64,000 bases of DNA from the NCBI GenBank assembly GCA_003439945.1, contig QVRM01005378.1, positions 110,001 to 174,000 of the forward strand, written 5' to 3'. Below the pieces are notes generated by a model. It was not told the DNA's origin. It searched no databases and worked only from the letters and a program-made list of their open reading frames with translations. This stretch comes from Dermanyssus gallinae (lineage: Eukaryota > Arthropoda > Arachnida > Mesostigmata > Dermanyssidae). The position numbers were made by a program, and so were the translations under genes. Positions 13,135 to 60,306 of the stretch are shown piece by piece. Positions within the stretch are counted from its first letter, which is position 1, and each line of letters opens with the position of its first letter.

Positions 13135-14240
13135 TTATTCATGAATATCTATTTTGTCCCCTTCAAAGTAATCCCCATGAGATATTATACACTTGTGCCA
13201 ACGGTTTTTCCAATCTTCGAAGCACTTCAAAAAACCATTTTTTTTTATCTTGTTCAGCTCCTCCATCGATGCCGTCTTTATCTCGTCAAGCGTAGCGTAA
13301 CGTCGTCCTTTCATGGGCCTCTTCAGTTTAGGGAACAAGAAAAAGTCACAGGGGGCCAGATCTGGGGAATACGGTGGCTGCGGCATCATTAGTGTGTTGT
13401 TTTTGGCCAAAAACTCGCGCACAAGCAACGATGTGTGAGCAGGGGCGTTATCGTGGTGCAAAAGCCAATTTTTGTTCTTCCACAAATCCGGGCGTTTCTG
13501 GCGGATTGCTTCGCGCAAATTGCGCATAACTTGCAGGTAATATTCCTTATTGACCGTTCTACCCTGTGGCAAGAACTCATGATGCACCACGCCCCTGCAA
13601 TCGAAGAAAACTGTCAGCAAAACTTTAATATTCGATCGAACTTGGCGCGCTTTTTTCGGTCTTGGTTCGTGCGGCAGCTTCCATTGAGCTGATTGAGCTT
13701 TGGTTTCCACGTCATAACCATAAACCCACGATTCGTCACCAGTTATGACCCTCTGGAGCAAATTTGGGCGTCGCGGACAGAGTCCAACATCTCATTAGCA
13801 ATGTTCATGCGATGCTGTTTTTGGTCGCAATTGAGCAATTTTGGTACGAATTTCGCGGCGACCCGTCTCATGCCCAAATCATTGATAAAAATCGAATGGC
13901 ACGAGCCAATCGATATGTTTAGGTCCTCAGCAACTTCTCTAACGGTGATTCGACGATTGGCCAATACCATTTTCTCCACTTCATTAATTTTTTCGTCTGT
14001 TGTTGAAGTGCTCGGGCGTCCGGCACGCTCTTCGTCGTTCACATCTTCTCGGCCTTCTGAGAACATTTTGTACCACCGATAAACGTTGCTTCGGTCCAAG
14101 GTAGCTTCTCCGTATGCCACAGTCAACATTCGGAATGCATCCGCGCACTTAATTTCGTTTTTCACACAAAATTTGATACAGGTTCTTTGATCAATTTTTT
14201 TGAATAGGTAAAAATCGAAGACGATCCAAAACACGTGCAA
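13135..14240 (-). pseudogene. Mariner transposase, one frameshift
   Basis: This is a cut-and-paste DDD transposase of the mariner family, in two overlapping minus-strand frames. Frame 14240-13743 has the N-terminal paired helix-turn-helix region, including NVYRWYKMFSEGREDV and GRPSTS, then the linker. Frame 13761-13135 has the catalytic core: GDESWVYGYD (first Asp), HHDNAPAHTS (second Asp) and PPYSPDLAPCDFFLFPKLK (third Asp), the D,D34D arrangement. The frames meet at about 13770-13785, just before the first catalytic Asp, where one base appears to be missing. The true start is uncertain because the first 20 or so codons of the open frame look unlike the family. No full-length protein can be made as read. 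A sequencing or assembly error is the alternative to a real mutation. Confidence 0.9.
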
Positions 14241-14368
14241 GCAAAGCAGCTGTCAACAATTAAGTGAACATTCAAAATGGCCGAGCTTGTCGGCATAAGT
14301 GAGAGACATGAGTACCAACATAACGCCACAAAAAATCGAAATTCGAATATACGTAACCCGCGAAAATT

Positions 14369-40599: not shown

Positions 40600-42094
40600 C
40601 CCTCACCCCTCCCCCACACACACACCCACTCTATTCATTGATTACGGATCGTTTCTCTATATAAGGTGGACATTGCATTTTCCCTATATTTCGCTACATG
40701 AAACGCGTTATTTACATGAGCGGACCTATTTATTCTGGACTGGATTCGTACCACTTGCCGTGTGCGTCTCGTGCTCAGCATGTAGAGTGGCAACCCACGT
40801 TGGTTGGTTTTGCTATTGCGTGCGTGAAAAACACGTCTGAAATCAGACATGCTTCCGTTCGTTGTGCAGAAAACGCACAGCATTTAATACGCGGTCTCTT
40901 TCTTCGCGCTAGGATGTTGCCAACGCATCGCTTCTCCGCAAAGTTGTTTGTTCTGAAGCACGAACTGCGCGGCGGGAGCCTCAGCAAAAGCACCTCACCT
41001 TCGATCAACGGACTTAGCGGCGGAAAAATGCCGGCCGACATCTTCCGGCACGTAACATGACGTAGCACGACTTGTCCGTGACGCTCCCTACCGTTCATTC
41101 GTCACGTCACGACCTAAAGGGGCGGATGTCGTCACTGAAGGCATGATGATTCATCATCCAAATACGACGCTTCCGTACTTCAGACACAGCCGTGCCTGAA
41201 CAACAGCCGCTGCCTTGCTGATACACATGCTCGTACCGGCTCGCTGGCCCTTACCAACAACGCCTGACCACGCCCGGTCCCCTTCCGATATGACACATAT
41301 GTGTGGGTGCGTGTATTTACTTAAGTTAACTTTGAGCCACGCGGAGACCAATGCTACTAGGATACAACGAGCATCCTGGAGACGGCATCACAAACGACAA
41401 AAGACACGAGAGCGGTGCCGACAAGCACACTAAAAAGAAAAATACAACGTTATTTAAATAACTTTGTATTTTTAGCCGATCTTGCAGGCGGTGATCAAGG
41501 CCTTGATCTTCGGCACGTATCTAATATGTATGTGGAGTTTGCTCGGTGGAGTGGAGAACAGCAATCAAGTTGATACTGTTTTTTTATAGATATGATATTT
41601 TATAGATTTTATAAAAAATGCATATTATTATTAACAACTTATAGATCGGATGCTTTATTGTGCGTAGCTGCGTCACGCTCTCAAGTACAATTTTGTTACA
41701 AGTTGTGATACGAATACATATTGGCAATTGACGACATGCCAACGAGCATGTCATTAATTGCGTGTTTAAGGCATACTTTTTTTTATAACACGATGCTCTT
41801 TTGGACGCATTGAAAACACGAGTCACGGCCTATTTAGACAATGCCCGAATAGAAGGTAATTCTATTCATGGTACTGTACGTAGCCGCTATCTACCTACAT
41901 GCTTAAGTTGAAAATAAACACTCTCCTAGCTTCTGCTTCTTGTGGTAAACAAGGTGGTTAGATACAGACGGAAAACCGTTTCGTTTGTTTAGGAAGGCTA
42001 GCTGATATGAGTTTCCTCTTTCAAACGGCGCCAGCGCTTGAGATAGTCTGTCAGATTATTCAGCAAGAGTTATCTTGTGTTTTGTATGTGACAC
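40600..42094. other. No gene recognised
   Basis: A CA run near 40612-40625 and several short frames at 40635-41098 on both strands. No motif or splice structure identified. Confidence 0.5.
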
Positions 42095-43845
42095 TAATAT
42101 ATATATATATATATATAAAGCTCAACAAAGCATGCATCCGACAGAGAACTCTTGAGGAGCACGCTGTTATTCGAAACAGCGATGTAAACTCAATCCACAG
42201 ATACGTCCGCAAACGAATCTCAGTTCGTGACTATCTGGCGTCAATTATGCGACCCGATGGTTCACTAGCTTCTGATGATTATGAAAAAGCAGAGTTAATT
42301 AAAAACATATTCGCACAAACCTATCCATCGAATGATGAGCTACGTCTGCGAGATTCTGGAGTTACGCATGCTCCTGGTGGTTACGACGACTTAGTGGTCG
42401 TGAATGATGTTGACGTCACATCCGAAAACCTGCTGAAGCACCTAAGAAGCCTGAAATCTAAGACAAGCGATACCCCTGATGGGGTGCCGTCAATCGTGTA
42501 CAAACAGCTTGGAATCTCGATATGCCACCCCTTAAGCTTGATATTTCGTCGATCGCTGGAAGATTCGATTGTACCAGAGATTTTTAGAACGGCGATTGTT
42601 AGCCCTGTACACAAGCGGGGAAATAAGTCAGACCCCAAGAATAAGCGACCGATCTCGCTCACTGTTATAGCTTGTAAACTGTTAGAAAGTGTAATTTCCA
42701 TGGCTATATATCAAAACGCCGACAAACAAGGACTGATCACTAAAGAACAATTTGCTTATCGTCCTGGTAGAAGCTGCACACTTCAACTGTTGGAGACGCA
42801 GTTTGACTGGGCAGAACATGTTCACGCATCAAGGTGTTTTGACGTTATATACTTTGATTTTAAGTCTGCTTTTGAAACTGTAACACATAGTAAACTACTG
42901 GAGTTACTACCTAAATTTGGAGTAGGCACCAAAATAGTTGCATGGGTAAATGATTTCCTACGTGAACGGACCTTCCATGTACGTGTTCATGATACACTGT
43001 CAGAGAAGGCTTATGCCACCTCTGGTTGCCCCCAAGGAACCATTCTTGGGCCACTAATGTTTATTCTTTACATCAATTCGCTACAGAGTATTATTCCCGA
43101 AAACGTGCAATATAAGATCTATGCGGATGACGTTAAAATATACGGAAACGCGAACTCGGCCGAGGACTGCAAAAAACTGCAAGATACGATAAACAATTTC
43201 TATAAGTGGTCCGTTTCGCTAGATCTGAAACTATCCGTGACAAAGTGCGTTGTACTTCATTTTGGTCACGGAAATGCAGAGAACAGTTACACAATCGGTG
43301 GCCATTCTCTTGCCTCGAAAAAACTAATTAGAGACCTTGGTGTAATGACATCAATTAATATGAAGTACACCGAACACATAACAGACATTGTTTTAAGAGC
43401 AACACAGAGAGCGAACTGGATTACACGCTCATTCATACTTAGAGATCCACATATATACTCAAAACTATTTGAGGTGTACGTACTGCCGATCATAACATAT
43501 GCAGCCCCAGTCTGGAATCCATGTCTGAAAAAAGATCAGCGACTCCTAGACAAGTTATGCAGCAAATACCGACGAAAGATTGCATACAAGTGTGGAATTC
43601 CAAGCGATGACGTCCAGATTCCCAACATATTAGAAAGGCTGCGGAAGATTGACTGTGATACCCTCGCAAATATTGAGAAAAATCATACCGATCTGATGTT
43701 AAAGATGTTCAATATCATTCATACGACGACGCGTCGTGAGAAGAACATTCTTCCAAAGTTTGTAGCGACAAAGCAAACACTTAACCATATGTTCCCTTGG
43801 AGAGTAACCCGCCAACTCCATGGAAATTTGATGTTAACAGACTAA
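42007..43845 (+). CDS. LINE reverse transcriptase (ORF2 C-terminal part)
   Basis: This is the reverse transcriptase of a non-LTR retrotransposon, which copies element RNA into a genomic target. The open frame is 612 codons. The first 37 or so are non-homologous and include Ile-Tyr from the TA run, so the real element sequence starts at about 42118. Motifs in order: the connector with NIFAQTYPS, KSKTSDTPDGVPSIVYK (42460-42500), NKRPISL, RPGRSC, FDFKSAFETV with the first catalytic Asp (42853-42880), SGCPQGTILGPLMFILYINS (43020-43080) and YADDVKIY with the catalytic Asp pair (43120-43143). The thumb and C-terminal region with YVLPIITYAAPVWNP follow. This order and the YADD box fit the CR1/Jockey/Rex group; the clade is an inference. 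The endonuclease is missing, so it cannot be autonomous as read. Confidence 0.9.
   Translation: MSFLFQTAPALEIVCQIIQQELSCVLYVTLIYIYIYIKLNKACIRQRTLEEHAVIRNSDVNSIHRYVRKRISVRDYLASIMRPDGSLASDDYEKAELIKNIFAQTYPSNDELRLRDSGVTHAPGGYDDLVVVNDVDVTSENLLKHLRSLKSKTSDTPDGVPSIVYKQLGISICHPLSLIFRRSLEDSIVPEIFRTAIVSPVHKRGNKSDPKNKRPISLTVIACKLLESVISMAIYQNADKQGLITKEQFAYRPGRSCTLQLLETQFDWAEHVHASRCFDVIYFDFKSAFETVTHSKLLELLPKFGVGTKIVAWVNDFLRERTFHVRVHDTLSEKAYATSGCPQGTILGPLMFILYINSLQSIIPENVQYKIYADDVKIYGNANSAEDCKKLQDTINNFYKWSVSLDLKLSVTKCVVLHFGHGNAENSYTIGGHSLASKKLIRDLGVMTSINMKYTEHITDIVLRATQRANWITRSFILRDPHIYSKLFEVYVLPIITYAAPVWNPCLKKDQRLLDKLCSKYRRKIAYKCGIPSDDVQIPNILERLRKIDCDTLANIEKNHTDLMLKMFNIIHTTTRREKNILPKFVATKQTLNHMFPWRVTRQLHGNLMLTD
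42095..42117. repeat. (TA)n at the 5' junction of the LINE
   Basis: A short TA run immediately upstream of the retrotransposon-related sequence. The open frame reads through it as Ile-Tyr. Confidence 0.9.
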
Positions 43846-53492: not shown

Positions 53493-54067
53493 TTACATTT
53501 GAGATGTCGATTGCCAGCGAAATAAAAACGAGGCCACTGAAAGGTTGCATCGAATCTCAATATAAACCGCACCGACAAGCCGTGTTATAGTAACGGAGAG
53601 CGTATGTGGCTTACGCGGAAGGTACTGAGATGAGCCCGTGAACACGCCGCGTGTGCGCATCATGGTGGATGCTGCCGCCGACGTAAGGTGGAGACCTGAC
53701 ACGTACTGGCTGGCCTCGTAAGCGAACGCGTCACTGCTCTGCGATACCTCCTTCATCGTGGTGGCAACGCACTTGAGCTTCAGCTCGTCGTTGGGAAAGT
53801 GCGCCGGCTGAAGGCGAAACCGCAGACCGAGCAGGTTTGCACCATTCCCACCGTTCCCGCCGGTCCCACCTCCGCCACCGCCGGGGCCCGCGTAGTTGAA
53901 CTTCTTCAGGACATCGGGCCGCGCCTCCTTGTCGTTAACGAACCACTGCAGGTGAATGATCTGTGTCACGTCGCCCCCGCCCGAGCAGTTCACGTTCAGC
54001 TCGTCGCCGACATCGTAACGAGGACGCGCCGTTCGTATGATGGGGCTGCCCATCTCCCGCGACTCAC
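53493..54067 (-). CDS. Beat-like exon: second Ig2-type domain and C-terminus
   Basis: Begins after TTCACAG in phase 1, the only nearby acceptor in the phase left by the previous exon. It encodes SPIIRTARPRYDVGDELNVN then Cys, LQWFVNDKEARPDVLKKF, a Gly/Asn-rich loop of about 18 residues, LLGLRFRLQPAHFPNDELKL then KCVAT. The whole domain is in one exon, unlike the preceding Ig2, which is split in three. The frame stays open to TAA at 53495-53493. The last 60 or so residues have less biased codons and no recognisable anchor, so an unseen donor before the stop is possible. Confidence 0.85.
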
Positions 54068-55703
54068 CTGTGAACACTGTCGCGAGGTTATGAGCCGATA
54101 GCCAGACGGACGGTATATATATATAGAGAGAGAGAAGGAAGAAAGAGAAAAGACAAAAAGAACACATTAGTTTAAACGAAATGTCCAAGATGACGTTTGC
54201 AGTACTAGGCTTCTCGTGTATGCCTTAGCTAGCGTCGCTCTGTATTTGCATAAACGCGTCGCGCTTGTACAGAGTCTGTAACGGCCGCTACCAACTTTTG
54301 TAGATTCTGAACGTCTCTGAGCTTTGTTAAGTTGTAACAGACGGGACCTATGAGCCTCACGCCCTGTGCCTGTTAGAAACATCAAATAGCCCTACGCACT
54401 GCGCCCGTTAAGAGCATTTAATAAAAAAATGTTTTCTTAAGAGATTTAACGTCTACGGAATTATTTTTCACATTGCTTCATAGACGGACCCCCATAAGTA
54501 CAAATGTGCAACGGGGGGGGGGGGTCGAACCCGCGCACCTATTAAGTGTCTCCTCCGGTTGCGAGGCGCAGACTTAAGCCACCACGCCACCAAGCTCGAC
54601 AAGAGCATATCATAATAGCCCGACGCTATCTGTCCGTTAGGGACATAAATAGGGTATGCAGATGCACGACGTAGGCAGCTAAACGATAGAACATCATCGT
54701 GTAGCCCTGTGGTGACGGATGGAGTTTTCCGTGGAAAGCGGGCGGGGAAGTCAGGATAGCCTCATACCATACCGTCCCACACACACACACCAACGTTATT
54801 AGTTTGCATCTGAGGTAGTTGCTAGTTAACTGGTACTCGCACCATTGCTACTGCTAAAAGTTTTCGGGCTGACCCTCAGCCAAGATTTAACGTCCATGGG
54901 ACTGCTTTTCGCATTGCTTCATAGACAGACCCCCATAAAAACAAATCGGTGCAACGGTGGGGCTCGAACCTGCGCACCTATGTGTCACCTCCGGTCGCGA
55001 GGCGCAGACGCATGCCGCCACGCGACCGGGCTCGATACTATTGCTACTGCTACGAACTACTGCTACTCCTAATGTTAGCATTATTGCTCCGCGCTGATCA
55101 TACGCGGATGCAAATACGAGTCCTGCCGACGGGCCCGATGTTGCGACAAAGAAAAGGCATTGCGGGAAAGAGGTTCGTATGGAATCGTCAGCGTGTTGGC
55201 CAAGGCCGACGCATGCGGGAGGTAAGGAGCGGATTTATTGCTCCATCCTCGTCCACTAGTTTGCGTTCAACGGGCGGCTCAGTAATAAGAGCTTTTTGAC
55301 CCGCATCTGGTAGGATCCTGTGACGGGGACCGTCTGCGGTGTGTGTGTGTGTGTGTCGTCCTGAGACGTCCTCCTTCGCTAATGACAGCGGTAAGCCTTG
55401 CCGAGGCCCGTTTGGGTCCTGATAGGATACGTTGCGGCCCGCGGCCCACAAAGACAAGGAGGACAGCCGCCAAGATGAGGGTGAACAAATTAGCTGGAGA
55501 ACGGTCGGCCACACAAGCAGAGTGACGATATCGGGGATAAGATATGTGTGAGTGTGTATGTTTCTTGTCTTTATACGTGTGCTGTTCTTGCGATGTGACG
55601 CCACATGAAGGAACACCTGCCAATTTCGAAAGACCTTTATCTATGGATGTGGCGGCAAAGGGGTGGCTTCATGCAAAACCTTATAGAAAATAATACTGTG
55701 CGA

Positions 55704-55735
<32 letters not shown>

Positions 55736-56570
55736 CCACCGAGTCTTCCGGTCTGTTTGGCTTAGAAGCGTCATTCAACAGCTTTTGCCAATCGGTGGCG
55801 GCGTTTATTGCTTGAGTTTGGTTCAAAGAAGAAAAATTTCGACAAGTTTTAAGGAGCCGAACATCAAGGAAAAACCTGCATCACGTTCTGTGTTATAAAC
55901 CAAATCATGCTGGTGGAAGAAAAAGATCTTAAGGTGTGGTGTTAGGAACCAAACCGCATGGTGGAAATGTCACAAGCTGCTTATCTACGGTGATCAAACA
56001 GTGTCCCGAAACACTGTATATACGTAGTACCATCGATTTCGCGACGGACGTGAAGAAACCGTAGATGACCCCCGTTCGGAAAGGTATTCGACCTCAATAA
56101 CAGAAAAAGAACGTTGAAAAGTCGTGATATCTTACTCAACAATCGCTGAATTTCTATTAAGGATTGGATAGCCGGTTAGCAGTTGTCACAGTCTTGATCG
56201 ATATTTTGTGCTGCAGAAGACTGACAACGAAGTTCGTTCCAAAAAATTGAAATTTCCAGCAAATGAACGCTCTTCGAGAATTCATGTCCGAACCTTCAGG
56301 CGGTAGCAAGAGGAGACCCTGGAGTGCTTTAGAGAGTGCTTACGGGAGACGAATCATGGGTATATGATTAGGACAGCGAGACCAAAGCTCAAGCCTCTTA
56401 GTGGTGCTTCCGGAGGAGCGAGTCGATCGAAGATATTCAGACAAAGCATATTTAACACCAAGGTTCTTTTGACTGACTTTTTCGACTATAAGGGTATATA
56501 TAAATATCAATTATATCATTGGGGTATATATAAATACGATATATAGATCTCCCAGGAAATTGTCACTATA

Positions 56571-56612
<42 letters not shown>

Positions 56613-58748
56613 CTTCCAGGAATTGTCACTTCTATGATCATTTTAGAATACTACCGCGAAATGTTTTGCGCAAGAAGATTCTGCGAGCACGTCCAAGTGG
56701 CCTAAACTACGAGCAAACAAGTTTTGGACACGCCATTATGTCAACGCACCGGCGTACACATCGTTACTGATCTTGGATTTCTTAATAAAAATTTCGGTTT
56801 ATATATTTCCGCAACATTCCTATTTGCCGTTCCTGGCTCCGACCATTTTCTGTACCCACAAATAAAACAAAAAATTGAAAAGGCAACGTCTCGAGACTAT
56901 GGAGGAGATAGGAAAAAATCGTACGAGCAACTCAAGTCTATTCCGAATAACGCGTTTAAAAACGTTCGATCCGCCTAAGAATGTAGTGGTCGACGTGTGT
57001 GGTAGGAACTTACCAGTGTTTCTTTTAGGATAGCGGACGGGTTGAACACGATCTCCTCCCATAACCAACTCTTCGGAAGTTCGGCTCTCCGTTTGCAGCA
57101 CGTAGGCCATACACCTGTTGGCGGAATCGGAGGGATTACTCGTCAATTTACATTTTTACGGGTTCGACACTTAACAGCTGCGACAAACACATCTAAATAC
57201 AAAGCACTCAACAATAGACCGCAATGGACGACCACACCAATATAACAACATCAGCAGCACCAAAAACAGCTACAATAACAACATCAACAACATCGACTAA
57301 AAAGCGACCATTTGAACAAAGACATAGTATAGGCAAATGACAATGCCAAAGACAATACAACGGAAACAAAGGCAACACCGTGAAGTAAAGGTTTACTTTT
57401 TTTAGGAGCAGGCCTAGTTTAATTTCATGCGGATGTTGTACCCAATTGTGGTTACTTTTAGCTTGACAAATTTGCGTGTTTCCGTAGAATTGATTGACAG
57501 CACTATTACGGAGAAGCTAAATAGCTGCTGCCCGGTTGCTGAGCGATCTGAAGTCCGACGAGAGCTCAAAACACGAGTTGCGTGCTTACCAAGTTAGTTT
57601 TACCATAATTGAAACCGTACCGTAGGGCCACTGTTTTCGTGCAAACGGTGTCATATCAATACGTGCTATTGATCCATCGAAAACCACATCATCATCCACA
57701 TCATGGAATGGAATGGTATATACATGATTATTGTGGTATGCATGTAGTAACTTATCGGAATGACTGGTATACCTGAGTTCAAGACGACCGCGGGCAACAT
57801 CCGTCTGCCGGATGGTAAACTGGATATTTGAGCTGACTGACTGGAGCCCGTTGTCATGTCGCATCGGGCCCGAATGCGAGATCTGGTGAAGCACCGATGG
57901 CTGCTCCATAGGCAACATCAGTTGTACAAAAGTAAGCACACAGATACACAAAAGCGTCTAAGTGAGAGTTGTCTCCATAACGGATAACAACAACCACACT
58001 AACAGTGGAACTGCCGTTAGCAACAACATGGTTCGAAGTTTAAGGGTTAAGTTAAAGAGACTGTTTTCTACAAAAATGTATATATTTATATACATTTTTA
58101 TACATATTTCAGCGCGGCAATGCGGCAGCAATTATGGGTACAATGAGGGGCTGCCTCGAGGATAAGCTCGATTGGTAGCACCCCTCACAAGCCCAAGAGT
58201 AGTTAGATATTCATATTCCACTGTAACTTCAAAATGAAATAAAACCATCTTTATCTATTATATATATATATATATCAGTTTGCAACATACCGTCTGATTG
58301 TTGATGAACCACCGAAGGGTTGCCTTCGGTCTTGATGGCCGCGAGTAGCAGGTGGCGTTCACCACGTCGCCTACGTGGTAGCTTGTCGAAAGACCCTGAA
58401 TCACCGGACCTTCGCTAGGGAGAACTACAACAATTGGAAGAAGGAAATTGTGGCACAAACGCGGTGACGCGTTTATTAGAACGCGGTGTTGACACAACTA
58501 GAAATAGTCGCGCTAGCGGCACCAGCGATGCTGGCAGCAACCGTGGCAGTACAAATAATAGGTACAGTAAACATTGTTAAACAGCGTATAGGTAAAATTA
58601 CTCTTACGTCTAACGATATGTAGAATAACAACGGTGAGCAGCGTATTAAAGGTGACATTAAATAGTCGCAAGTGGATAAAATAGCACTGCGTACGCAGAG
58701 GGAAGACGACACTACCGCCAGGGATCTTGCCGTATCACAACTTTCTAT

Positions 58749-58818
<70 letters not shown>

Positions 58819-60306
58819 CTAGATCTTGAGTCATTTTCATTTATTGTTGGTATAGTAGAATACATAGGGATATTTAGGTAGATTGCCATTAATTTTAACA
58901 ACTTGGGAACAATATAGTCAATATGTCAGCTGTCAAACAATGTCGATTCCCGGTCGCTGACAATACTATCAATTCGGCTAACTGATGATGCAGGATTGTC
59001 TACGGATAAAGGTAAAAGGCAACAGCCACCTTCAACAGTAGCAGCAACAACAACAGCAACAACAACGTCAACTACAACATCAACAACAACATCAACAACA
59101 ACAGCAACAATAACAACAACAGCAACAATAACAACAACAACAACAACAAGAACAGCAACAAGAACAAAAACAACCATCAGAACAACAAACGATAGACAGC
59201 AACTAATAATAACGACAACACCGCGACATTAGCACCTAACGCGCACGCCGAACTACCTCCACTATTATCTTATCGCAGTTTGTGTGGCCTGGGCTGTCCC
59301 TGCGTCCCTGCGTGACATTTCATTTCCGCCTACCGGACGTTGTCTACCCAGGGGAGGATGGGGAGGGAGTTGGCCCCTCGCTTCTGCCCGGCGTCGGTCA
59401 TCGCCTGGTTTGTTTCACGAAGCCACCTCAACCAGCCGACAAATCAGACGCTTATATGGATGATGTCTATTAGTAGTGTCGCTACGGCTGCCAGCGTCAC
59501 TACACGGGGCGTTGTTGTCGTCATCTGTTGCTACACGTATACTACTACTACAATTATTGCCAGAAGTATGCGAAAAAAAAACTTATTTAAATTCATTAAA
59601 TTAAAAACCTTAAATATTGTTATTATTCATTCTATAACATGAACAAGAGTTACCGCCACAGCTGTGCCACGTATCGTCACGATATCACTGACCTGCGTGT
59701 CCTATTCATGAAATACACTTTTTTCTTAATTATGGCCTATGTTAATCAATTCCATTATTACATTTCTAGCGTAGGATATAAAGCGCCAGTATGTGGGGTT
59801 AAGTTGATAATGTCGGTTTTGATAGCGTCGTACAAATATAGAGTTAAATGAGACATCTACCATTAGAGGAAAAATATTTTAATTATACTGATACCCGAGG
59901 AGCAAATGGAAACGAATGCAGAACTTATGGACAACTATTGTCGTAGAGCCATGCTGCTAAACATCACCCACGTATGCTGTTAGTGTATCACGCACGTCAA
60001 AATGCGTTCGGAGAAGAGTAGAGAGGTTATTCTACTTGACCAGTTTATTTGTTTGATTTAATGCACACATGCTTAAAGCACATGTGAACTTGAGGTGATT
60101 ACGTACGCAGCATTCTATGCAGATTTAGATACGCGCGTTCCACCACTCACATATTGACCCATTGACTTACCATAGATTCGCATCTCCTTCTCTCCGCGCA
60201 CAGTCTGGTAGGATGGGCCTTCCGTCGAGACTTCGCAGCCGTAGACGCCCTCCGAGTTGATGTCCGTCCGTGAAAGGAAGACGACGTTCTTTGTCGATCT
60301 GACCGG
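53493..60306 (-). CDS. Beat-like immunoglobulin protein, three Ig domains, 5' end outside window
   Basis: Beaten-path proteins are secreted or membrane-anchored Ig-superfamily proteins of arthropods that bind Sidestep-type receptors in axon guidance and neuronal wiring. Five exons on the minus strand (60306-60171, 58424-58291, 57900-57773, 57114-57014, 54067-53493) join with matching phases 1, 0, 2, 1. Together they give the end of Ig1 (GVYGCEVSTEGPSYQTV), the linker VLPSEGPVI, a full Ig2 with C-W-C (NATCYSR, LRWFIN, LELRCMA), a linker of about 30 residues, and a second Ig2-like domain (DVGDELNVNCSG, LQWFVNDK, LKLKCVAT). Usual Beats have only two Ig domains. The signal peptide and first half of Ig1 must lie beyond 60.3 kb and were not found. 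The paralogue is not assigned, so no symbol is given. The C-terminus is uncertain. Confidence 0.8.
54115..54145. repeat. Short TA/GA run in the last intron
   Basis: TATATATATA followed by GAGAGAGAG in the intron upstream of exon 5 on the minus strand. Confidence 0.8.
54418..54600 (-). mobile_element. tRNA-derived SINE, family 1, copy C
   Basis: A 183-bp element flanked by a perfect 8-bp duplication AAGAGCAT (54410-54417 and 54601-54608). The minus-strand head starts TCGAGCTTGGTGGCGTGGTGG, with a B-box-like GGGTTCGACC at about 54531-54522. The body has TTATGGGGGTCCGTCTATG and ACGTTAAATCTC and lacks the GAGAGTCAGCC block seen in copies B and D. A G/C homopolymer of about 12 bases lies beside the B-box. 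It is inserted in the last intron of the Beat-like gene, in the same orientation as that gene. Confidence 0.9.
54857..55039 (-). mobile_element. tRNA-derived SINE, family 1, copy D
   Basis: A 183-bp element flanked by a perfect 13-bp duplication ATTGCTACTGCTA (54844-54856 and 55040-55052). The head reads ATCGAGCCCGGTCGCGTGGC, the B-box is GGTTCGAGCCCC (about 54969-54958), and the body has TTTATGGGGGTCTGTCTATG, CATGGACGTTAAATCTTGGC and CTGAGGGTCAGCCCG. It lies in the same intron as copy C, 256 bp away and in the same orientation. The duplication and close match to copy B suggest recent activity. Confidence 0.93.
55325..55360. repeat. (GT)n run
   Basis: A short GT run near 55340-55354 in the intron. 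55.05-55.7 kb otherwise shows nothing recognised. Confidence 0.8.
55708..55735. repeat. (TA)n array
   Basis: About 27 bp of TA just upstream of the intronic mariner relic. Confidence 0.95.
55900..56985 (+). pseudogene. Mariner transposase relic in the Beat-like intron
   Basis: Plus-strand blocks in order: GDQTVSRNTVY and HRFRDGREETVDDPRSERYS (DNA-binding region), ETNHGYMI with ETKAQAS (after the first catalytic Asp, itself lost), TKVLLTDFFDYKGI, a block with NAPAYTSLLI, then a degraded PDLAP-DF block and GDRKKSYEQLKSIPNNAFKN (C-terminal). A TA-rich expansion of about 130 bp (56495-56625) splits the middle, and many frames are broken. It is on the strand opposite to the host gene. Confidence 0.75.
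56576..56609. repeat. (TA)n array inside the mariner relic
   Basis: About 34 bp of TA, flanked by two near-copies of ATCTYCCAGGAAATTGTCAC (about 56547-56567 and 56610-56630). The relic seems to have gained a local duplication together with the TA tract. Confidence 0.85.
57014..57114 (-). CDS. Beat-like exon: end of Ig2 and linker
   Basis: Acceptor CCGATTCCGCCAACAG has a good pyrimidine tract. The first base completes Arg, followed at once by Cys (TGT): RCMAYVLQTESRTSEELVM. This provides the second Ig2 cysteine in the expected L-x-L-R-C position. The exon continues through GGDRVQPVRYPKRNTG and ends at ACTG|GTAAGT, a consensus donor, in phase 1. It is only 101 nt long, so it was recognised by phase and motif rather than by open-frame length. 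Confidence 0.82.
57773..57900 (-). CDS. Beat-like exon: middle of Ig2
   Basis: After acceptor GGAGCAG the exon begins in phase 0 with PSVLHQISHSG and continues NGLQSVSSNIQFTI, then GRLELR. This matches the Beat G-L-x-x-x-x-x-x-F-x-V and G-x-L-x-L-R/K blocks. The donor is CTCAG|GTATAC, phase 2, and leaves AG to be completed by the next exon. Reading on past this donor gives a Tyr where Ig2 needs Cys and a stop at 57586-57588. The extra 180 bases are therefore probably intron. Confidence 0.82.
58259..58276. repeat. Short (TA)n beside the Ig2 exon donor
   Basis: A TA run only about 15 bp downstream of the donor at 58290, within the 390-bp intron. Confidence 0.9.
58291..58424 (-). CDS. Beat-like exon: first half of Ig2
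   Basis: After acceptor TTGTAG the exon supplies two bases completing Val, then LPSEGPVIQG, YHVGDVVNATCYSR (first Ig2 cysteine, inside an N-A-T glycosylation sequon) and ATLRWFINNQT (core Trp, second sequon). It matches Beat LP-x-E-G-P and Y-x-V-G-D boxes closely. Donor CAGACG|GTATGT, phase 0. It is 134 nt long. Confidence 0.92.
58747..58818. repeat. (TA)n array in Beat-like intron
   Basis: About 72 bp of TA with two AAATA interruptions, in the 1.75-kb intron between the Ig1 and Ig2 exons. Confidence 0.95.
59030..59220. repeat. CAA/CAG/AAC triplet array in Beat-like intron
   Basis: Nearly 190 bp of ACA/AAC/CAG/ATA triplets. The open frames on both strands (poly-Thr and poly-Val) are artefacts. 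It lies in the intron between the Ig1 and Ig2 exons. Confidence 0.9.
60171..60306 (-). CDS. Beat-like exon: second half of Ig1
   Basis: Reads PVRSTKNVVFLSRTDINSEG then VYGCEVSTEGPSYQTV, the Y-x-C-E-V-S-x-E-x-P-S-Y/F-Q-T signature of Beat Ig1, with the C-terminal cysteine of that domain. The donor is CTATG|GTAAGT at 60170, ending in phase 1. Two acceptors are possible: TGTAG before 60306 (exon starts in phase 0) and GTCAG before 60298 (phase 2). The upstream exon is needed to choose between them. Confidence 0.9.

What the first reader, a model, noticed from the sequence alone, without database searches (positions are those of the whole stretch)
53493..60306. Beat-like gene with a duplicated second Ig domain (three Ig domains instead of two)
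Seen: five minus-strand exons whose phases match at all four junctions. They encode the end of Beat Ig1, a full Ig2, then another full domain with the same Y-x-V-G-D, core Trp and L-x-L-K-C landmarks. Known: described Beat proteins generally carry one Ig1 and one Ig2. Inferred: the second domain has been duplicated in tandem. The first copy is split by two introns, while the other is in one exon with a Gly/Asn-rich loop. This would lengthen the ectodomain and could change Sidestep binding.
Basis: partly seen in the sequence, partly recalled or inferred. Interest (0 to 1): 0.82.

Follow-up and report, generated by a model that had tools for sequence, protein, structure and literature searches.

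The report
Mite Beat gene with three Igs
A mite gene of a nerve-wiring family carries three immunoglobulin domains where its described fly relatives have two, and this looks like an old trait shared by spiders, ticks, scorpions and horseshoe crabs rather than a quirk of this one gene.

Summary
Five minus-strand exons (60306-60171, 58424-58291, 57900-57773, 57114-57014, 54067-53493) have AG/GT borders, matching phases and one open frame. They encode the end of a Beat Ig1, a split Ig2 and one more complete Ig. Single proteins from Galendromus (71% identity, whole query covered) and ticks carry all of it in that order. A paralogue in the same genome encodes Ig1-Ig2-Ig3 in one frame.

The interpretation needs correcting: the third Ig is a copy of Ig2, but an old one. 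By domain profiles, 84 of 101 named chelicerate proteins are Ig1-Ig2-Ig3, horseshoe crabs included, and 0 of 5 named insect proteins. In 34 selected proteins the third domains form one group (94/85) and the second another (96/90). A tree without Ig3 keeps these genes in one clade (99/98). A duplication private to this gene is rejected (AU p 0.0008).

Likeliest working: Ig1 binds a Side-like partner, and the extra Ig lengthens the stalk. Binding, expression, the 5' exons and the 3' end are not established. My searches of an open-access library showed no mention of three-Ig Beats.

The parts
60171..60306 (-). Exon A: C-terminal half of Ig1, ending in phase 1
   Evidence: Borders and open frame; tblastn of P0001 E 2e-21, 89% identity
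58291..58424 (-). Exon B: start of Ig2 (first Cys and core Trp)
   Evidence: tblastn of P0001 E 5e-23, 87% identity
57773..57900 (-). Exon C: middle of Ig2
   Evidence: tblastn of P0001 E 1e-18, 82% identity
57014..57114 (-). Exon D: end of Ig2 (second Cys) and Ig2-Ig3 linker; ends in phase 1, so B+C+D (363 bases) is a symmetric 1-1 module
   Evidence: tblastn of P0001 E 4e-6, and of Tropilaelaps P0003 E 5e-16, 97% identity; P0003 ends at this border
53493..54067 (-). Exon E: linker, complete Ig3 and C-terminal stretch; the true 3' end (stop at 53493, or donor at 53615 and a further exon) is not settled
   Evidence: tblastn of P0001 E 3e-39 and P0002 E 2e-41
53718..54050 (-). Ig3 domain within exon E
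   Evidence: Ig3 profile match, residues 172-282 of the joined product, 92 bits; coordinates checked
53835..53888 (-). Gly/Asn-rich insert in an Ig3 loop, a gap in P0001 and P0002
   Evidence: tblastn alignments; coordinates checked

Best explanation
This is a member of a chelicerate subfamily of Beaten-path-like proteins with three Ig domains. Supported by sequence: the order Ig1-Ig2-Ig3, and that Ig3 and Ig2 descend from one domain duplication older than the last common ancestor of the sampled horseshoe crabs and arachnids, after which the gene was copied many times. Inferred: the duplication was eased by the Ig2 unit being flanked by phase-1 introns. Inferred mechanism: a signal peptide sends the protein to the cell surface, a hydrophobic C-terminal tail tethers it (possibly as a GPI signal), Ig1 at the tip binds a Side-like partner as in flies, and Ig2-Ig3 form a stalk one Ig longer than in two-Ig Beats, placing the binding site farther from the membrane.
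For: Exons, phases, frame. Full-length relatives covering the whole query: Galendromus 71% (a record marked partial), unnamed P0002 61%, Ixodes 45%, Dermacentor 44%. P0002 is one 401-aa frame and its longest contig is 3,100 bases, as expected of a spliced transcript (source unnamed). One-frame three-Ig paralogue L002 in the same genome, with a Varroa relative at 91%. Ig1-Ig2-Ig3 in 84 of 101 named chelicerate, 17 of 27 unnamed and 0 of 5 named insect proteins (profiles from 21 seeds). Domain tree of selected proteins (34 of the 103 with Ig1-Ig2-Ig3): Ig3 94/85, Ig2 96/90. Gene tree without Ig3: three-Ig clade 99/98. AU test against a private duplication, p 0.0008. AlphaFold models of relatives P0002 (pLDDT 82, pTM 0.63) and P0022 (84, 0.68): strands across all three domain stretches, and a helix at each end. 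Beat kinship: P0006 matches solved Beat Vc (E 3e-26) and Beat Vb (1e-21). Ig1 as binding domain: PMC9743010, passages.
Against: No RNA of this species was examined, and the spliced window product was not folded. The 5' exons were not found and the genome server stopped answering. The domain tree has only 101 columns for 78 rows, and 94/85 falls short of the tool's star. The mite-level alternative is rejected only at p 0.017. Rooted on insects, the domain tree would put the Ig2-Ig3 split before the split of chelicerate two-Ig and three-Ig genes (95/75, not starred), implying a later loss of Ig3; the order is unresolved. Paired directly, L002 matches exon E best with its own Ig2, not its Ig3; its Ig3 is very divergent (branch 2.15). 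Only 120 of 534 profile hits were listed, the profile was chelicerate, and the insect sample is small. Five of the seven two-Ig rows taken as chelicerate (three of five) come from unnamed sources. Side binding and a nervous-system role are untested here.
Confidence: 0.83

Rival explanations
1. Exon E is an alternative second Ig: some or all transcripts splice A directly to E and make a two-Ig protein instead of using B-C-D.
For: A and D both end in phase 1, so A-to-E keeps the frame. Four of 101 named chelicerate gene models have Ig1 and Ig3 but no recognised Ig2: ticks P0014 and P0017, scorpion P0115 and P0118.
Against: Orthologues such as P0001, P0002, P0004 and P0006 carry all three domains in one protein, and L002 has them in one frame. 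The four models may be mispredictions: P0014 and P0017 hold other sequence where Ig2 should be, and P0115 repeats the same Ig1 stretch (by eye).
Confidence: 0.12
2. Exon E belongs to a separate, neighbouring two-Ig Beat gene.
For: L002 matches exon E with its Ig2 rather than its Ig3, and the D-E intron is 2.9 kb.
Against: tblastn with eight Beat proteins gives nothing better than E 0.8 in the D-E intron. Galendromus P0001 runs through all five exons. In the tree exon E falls with third domains. The intron holds broken transposon pieces and two copies of a SINE-like repeat.
Confidence: 0.03
3. A recent tandem duplication of Ig2 private to this gene or to mesostigmatan mites.
For: Ig2 and Ig3 share landmarks and lie in tandem.
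Against: The window's Ig2 and Ig3 are 25% identical, while its Ig3 is 65% identical to that of Galendromus and 38% to that of Limulus P0032. AU p 0.0008 for this gene and 0.017 for the window product, P0001 and P0002 together (that P0002 is mesostigmatan is inferred).
Confidence: 0.02

Closest known systems
Drosophila Beaten path (Beat) family, 14 members
   Same: Homologous Ig1 and following Ig2; orthologue P0006 matches solved Beat Vb and Vc
   Different: Described Beats have two IgSF domains (PMC5578738 section 6); here there is a third Ig related to Ig2. Beat Ia's cysteine-rich C-terminus (PMC9743010, passages) has no counterpart in relative P0002, which has one Cys after Ig3.
Two-Ig Beats of about 294 aa in spiders (P0113, P0121) and unnamed sources
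   Same: Same Ig1 type; their second Ig lies beside the Ig2-of-three group (95/75)
   Different: No Ig3; a separate clade (99/97) in the gene tree
Nectins, nectin-like proteins and RAGE (V-C-C ectodomains)
   Same: Among the best Foldseek matches of the P0002 model; three Ig domains
   Different: 10-21% identity in the 50 rows shown, and about 28-29 A rmsd when nectin-1 or -3 is aligned over three domains: a shared general fold, not close kinship

Membership tests
Beat family (homology sense) | Ig1 and Ig2 homologous to Drosophila Beats | tested here: met
   P0006, an orthologue, versus Beat Vc 9nsf E 3e-26 and Beat Vb 9np7 E 1e-21; the window itself holds only the end of Ig1
Beat family (as described in Drosophila) | Exactly two Ig domains | tested here: not met
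   Three Ig domains; filed as a three-Ig chelicerate variant, not as a canonical two-Ig Beat
Beat family (as described in Drosophila) | Binds a Sidestep-family protein | not testable with these tools
   Needs binding assays; the tick Side-like proteins of PMC5578738 form a distinct outgroup (section 6)
Beat family (as described in Drosophila) | Secreted or membrane-tethered | tested here: inconclusive
   Relatives P0002 and P0022 are modelled with a helix at each end and have hydrophobic tails; this gene's own ends were not found, and the candidate 3' exon 52870-52788 is no better than chance
Beat Ia | Cysteine-rich C-terminus resembling cystine knots | tested here: inconclusive
   Relative P0002 has one Cys after Ig3, but this gene's own 3' end is not known
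Chelicerate three-Ig Beat subfamily (defined here) | Ig3 in the Ig3 group and gene in the three-Ig clade | tested here: met

The most novel reading that the evidence does not exclude
Early chelicerates invented a longer Beat by copying its Ig2 module, then multiplied it into a large recognition repertoire. Because the split Ig2 can be spliced out in frame, some genes may switch between two- and three-Ig lengths, tuning membrane spacing at neuronal contacts.
Probability: 0.15. Interest if true: 0.65.

Novelty: new variant of a known kind. Interest (0 to 1): 0.45.

Why it matters
Beats are described from flies as two-Ig proteins. A chelicerate three-Ig subfamily means that the domain count is not fixed in the family. 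Names in the databases mostly hide the kinship: many are 'uncharacterized', 'syg-2-like' or 'cell adhesion molecule 4-like', though one is 'putative beat protein' (P0064). It also adds a second expanded recognition family to the chelicerate shortened Dscams (titles and abstracts), and offers a testable change in ectodomain length on a conserved binding head.

Tried and rejected
Private recent duplication: rejected by tree and AU test. Separate gene for exon E: no second Ig1 in the D-E intron (whose print was cut; repeated in full). 3' exon: a scan for a phase-1 hydrophobic last exon gave one candidate, 52870-52788, but the same scan gives 1.3 (plus strand) and 2.3 (minus strand) hits per 7.5 kb over the window, so I dropped it. 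Structure comparisons gave general Ig matches only; the solved Beats 9np7 and 9nsf were not among the rows shown, which says nothing either way. Rfam and tRNA scans of the window found nothing. Proteins with other extra-Ig layouts were set apart: P0085 (Diamesa) is two two-Ig units in a row, perhaps a fused gene model; P0107 (unnamed) and P0108 (Diorhabda) are three Ig1 plus one Ig2. Paper searches for Beats with chelicerate, arthropod or three-Ig terms: no title or abstract shown reports a three-Ig Beat. One search matched 12,914 papers and showed 20, so it says little. I saw listings, passages of PMC9743010, PMC11999971 and PMC6256547, and passages and section 6 of PMC5578738.

Full report
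Observation. AG precedes each and GT follows exons A to D, the phases agree at all four junctions, and the joined frame is open. The Galendromus protein P0001 matches them in order, residues 67-111, 110-156, 155-199, 199-229 and 234-348, with E-values from 4e-6 to 3e-39 in a 64 kb search. No significant match for the first half of Ig1 or a signal peptide was found in the window.

Source. The window is C5371:110001-174000 of an unnamed assembly of 958,664,175 bases in 7,160 contigs. The published Dermanyssus gallinae assembly is 959 Mb in 7,171 contigs (PMC6256547, passages), so the poultry red mite is the likely source. This is an inference; it fits Galendromus as the best full-length relative and 89% identity to a Tropilaelaps fragment that covers 56% of the query.

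One gene, three domains. The search with the joined product returned 21 proteins. Several cover 100% of the query: Galendromus P0001 71% (its record is marked partial), the unnamed P0002 61%, Ixodes P0004 45%, Dermacentor P0006 44%. P0002 is a 401-residue frame and its longest contig is 3,100 bases, as expected of a spliced transcript. In the same genome L002 encodes Ig1, Ig2 and a third Ig in one frame, and Varroa has a relative of it at 91% identity. AlphaFold models of P0002 (pLDDT 82, pTM 0.63) and Varroa P0022 (84, 0.68) show strands across the three domain stretches and a helix at each end; the angles between domains are not to be trusted at such pTM, and the spliced window product itself was not folded.

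How widespread. A profile search returned 534 proteins at E 1e-20 or better, of which the best 120 were listed. I scored all 133 proteins of the three searches, plus the window product and L002 (135 in all), with Ig1, Ig2 and Ig3 profiles made from 21 seeds that are themselves among them. Ig1-Ig2-Ig3 was found in 84 of 101 named chelicerate proteins, 17 of 27 unnamed ones, 2 of 2 from this genome and 0 of 5 named insect proteins; 87 of 135 have three domains of at least 85 residues each. The sources listed include Limulus, Tachypleus, spiders, scorpions, ticks, and mesostigmatan and spider mites. I sorted the organism names into chelicerates and insects from memory. The profile was built from chelicerates, so three-Ig Beats elsewhere could have been missed.

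When it arose. For the domain tree I chose 34 of the 103 proteins with Ig1-Ig2-Ig3, plus 8 two-Ig proteins and the two second domains of P0085. On 101 columns the 34 third domains form one group (94/85) and the 34 second domains another (96/90); the second domains of five two-Ig proteins (two from named spiders, three unnamed) join the latter (95/75). Holding the window's Ig2 and Ig3 together costs 124 log units (AU p 0.0008); holding both domains of the window product, P0001 and P0002 together gives p 0.017. A gene tree made without Ig3 puts the same 34 genes in one clade (99/98), apart from 7 two-Ig rows (two from named spiders, five unnamed) and 3 insect rows. One duplication older than the common ancestor of the sampled horseshoe crabs and arachnids explains this. 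Whether it came before or after the split from two-Ig chelicerate genes is not resolved: rooted on insects, the domain tree would have it before, with a later loss. The window's Ig2 and Ig3 are 25% identical, while its Ig3 is 65% identical to that of Galendromus. Against this reading, L002 matches exon E best with its Ig2 rather than its own, very divergent Ig3.

How it probably works. Beat kinship rests on sequence: the orthologue P0006 matches solved Beat Vc and Vb. In flies the first Ig of Beat is needed to bind Side (PMC9743010, passages). Ig1 is kept in the relatives, so I expect the partner to bind Ig1 and the added Ig to act as a spacer. Tether and partner are inferred. B+C+D is a symmetric phase-1 module, which would help both its duplication and its skipping; 4 of 101 named chelicerate models have Ig1 and Ig3 without a recognised Ig2, so a two-Ig isoform stays possible, though some of these look like mispredictions.

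Known or not. [quoted passage not shown] the section does not mention a third domain. No title or abstract shown by my paper searches reports a three-Ig Beat; most subscription journals are not in that library. The proteins themselves are in public databases, mostly under other names. Verdict: a real and apparently unremarked variant of a known family, of moderate interest.

Noticed in passing
L002 (G000:C6092:159646-159987, minus): A second three-Ig Beat in the same genome whose three Ig domains lie in one uninterrupted frame, possibly an old retrocopy; Varroa has a relative at 91% (P0022).
   Followed up: partly
window 55871-56982 (+), inside the D-E intron: Pieces similar to a mariner-type transposase, in several frames, so broken; a longer copy in two overlapping frames lies at 13138-14252 (-).
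   Followed up: partly
window 55035-54880, 54599-54442, 34533-34381, 26554-26442 (all -): A repeat of about 155 bases in four copies (the other three 76-89% identical to the first, the last one partial); by eye it has tRNA-like A and B boxes, so perhaps a SINE, though ARAGORN found no tRNA.
   Followed up: partly
window 41962-43845 (+): A 627-codon open frame with a reverse-transcriptase domain (RVT_1, E 8e-31).
   Followed up: partly
P0107 (unnamed source) and P0108 (beetle Diorhabda): Beat-like proteins with three Ig1-type domains followed by one Ig2: a different route to extra domains.
   Followed up: no
P0115 and P0118 (scorpion Centruroides): Gene models that go from Ig1 to an Ig3-type domain without Ig2, either Ig2-skipping isoforms or mispredictions.
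   Followed up: partly
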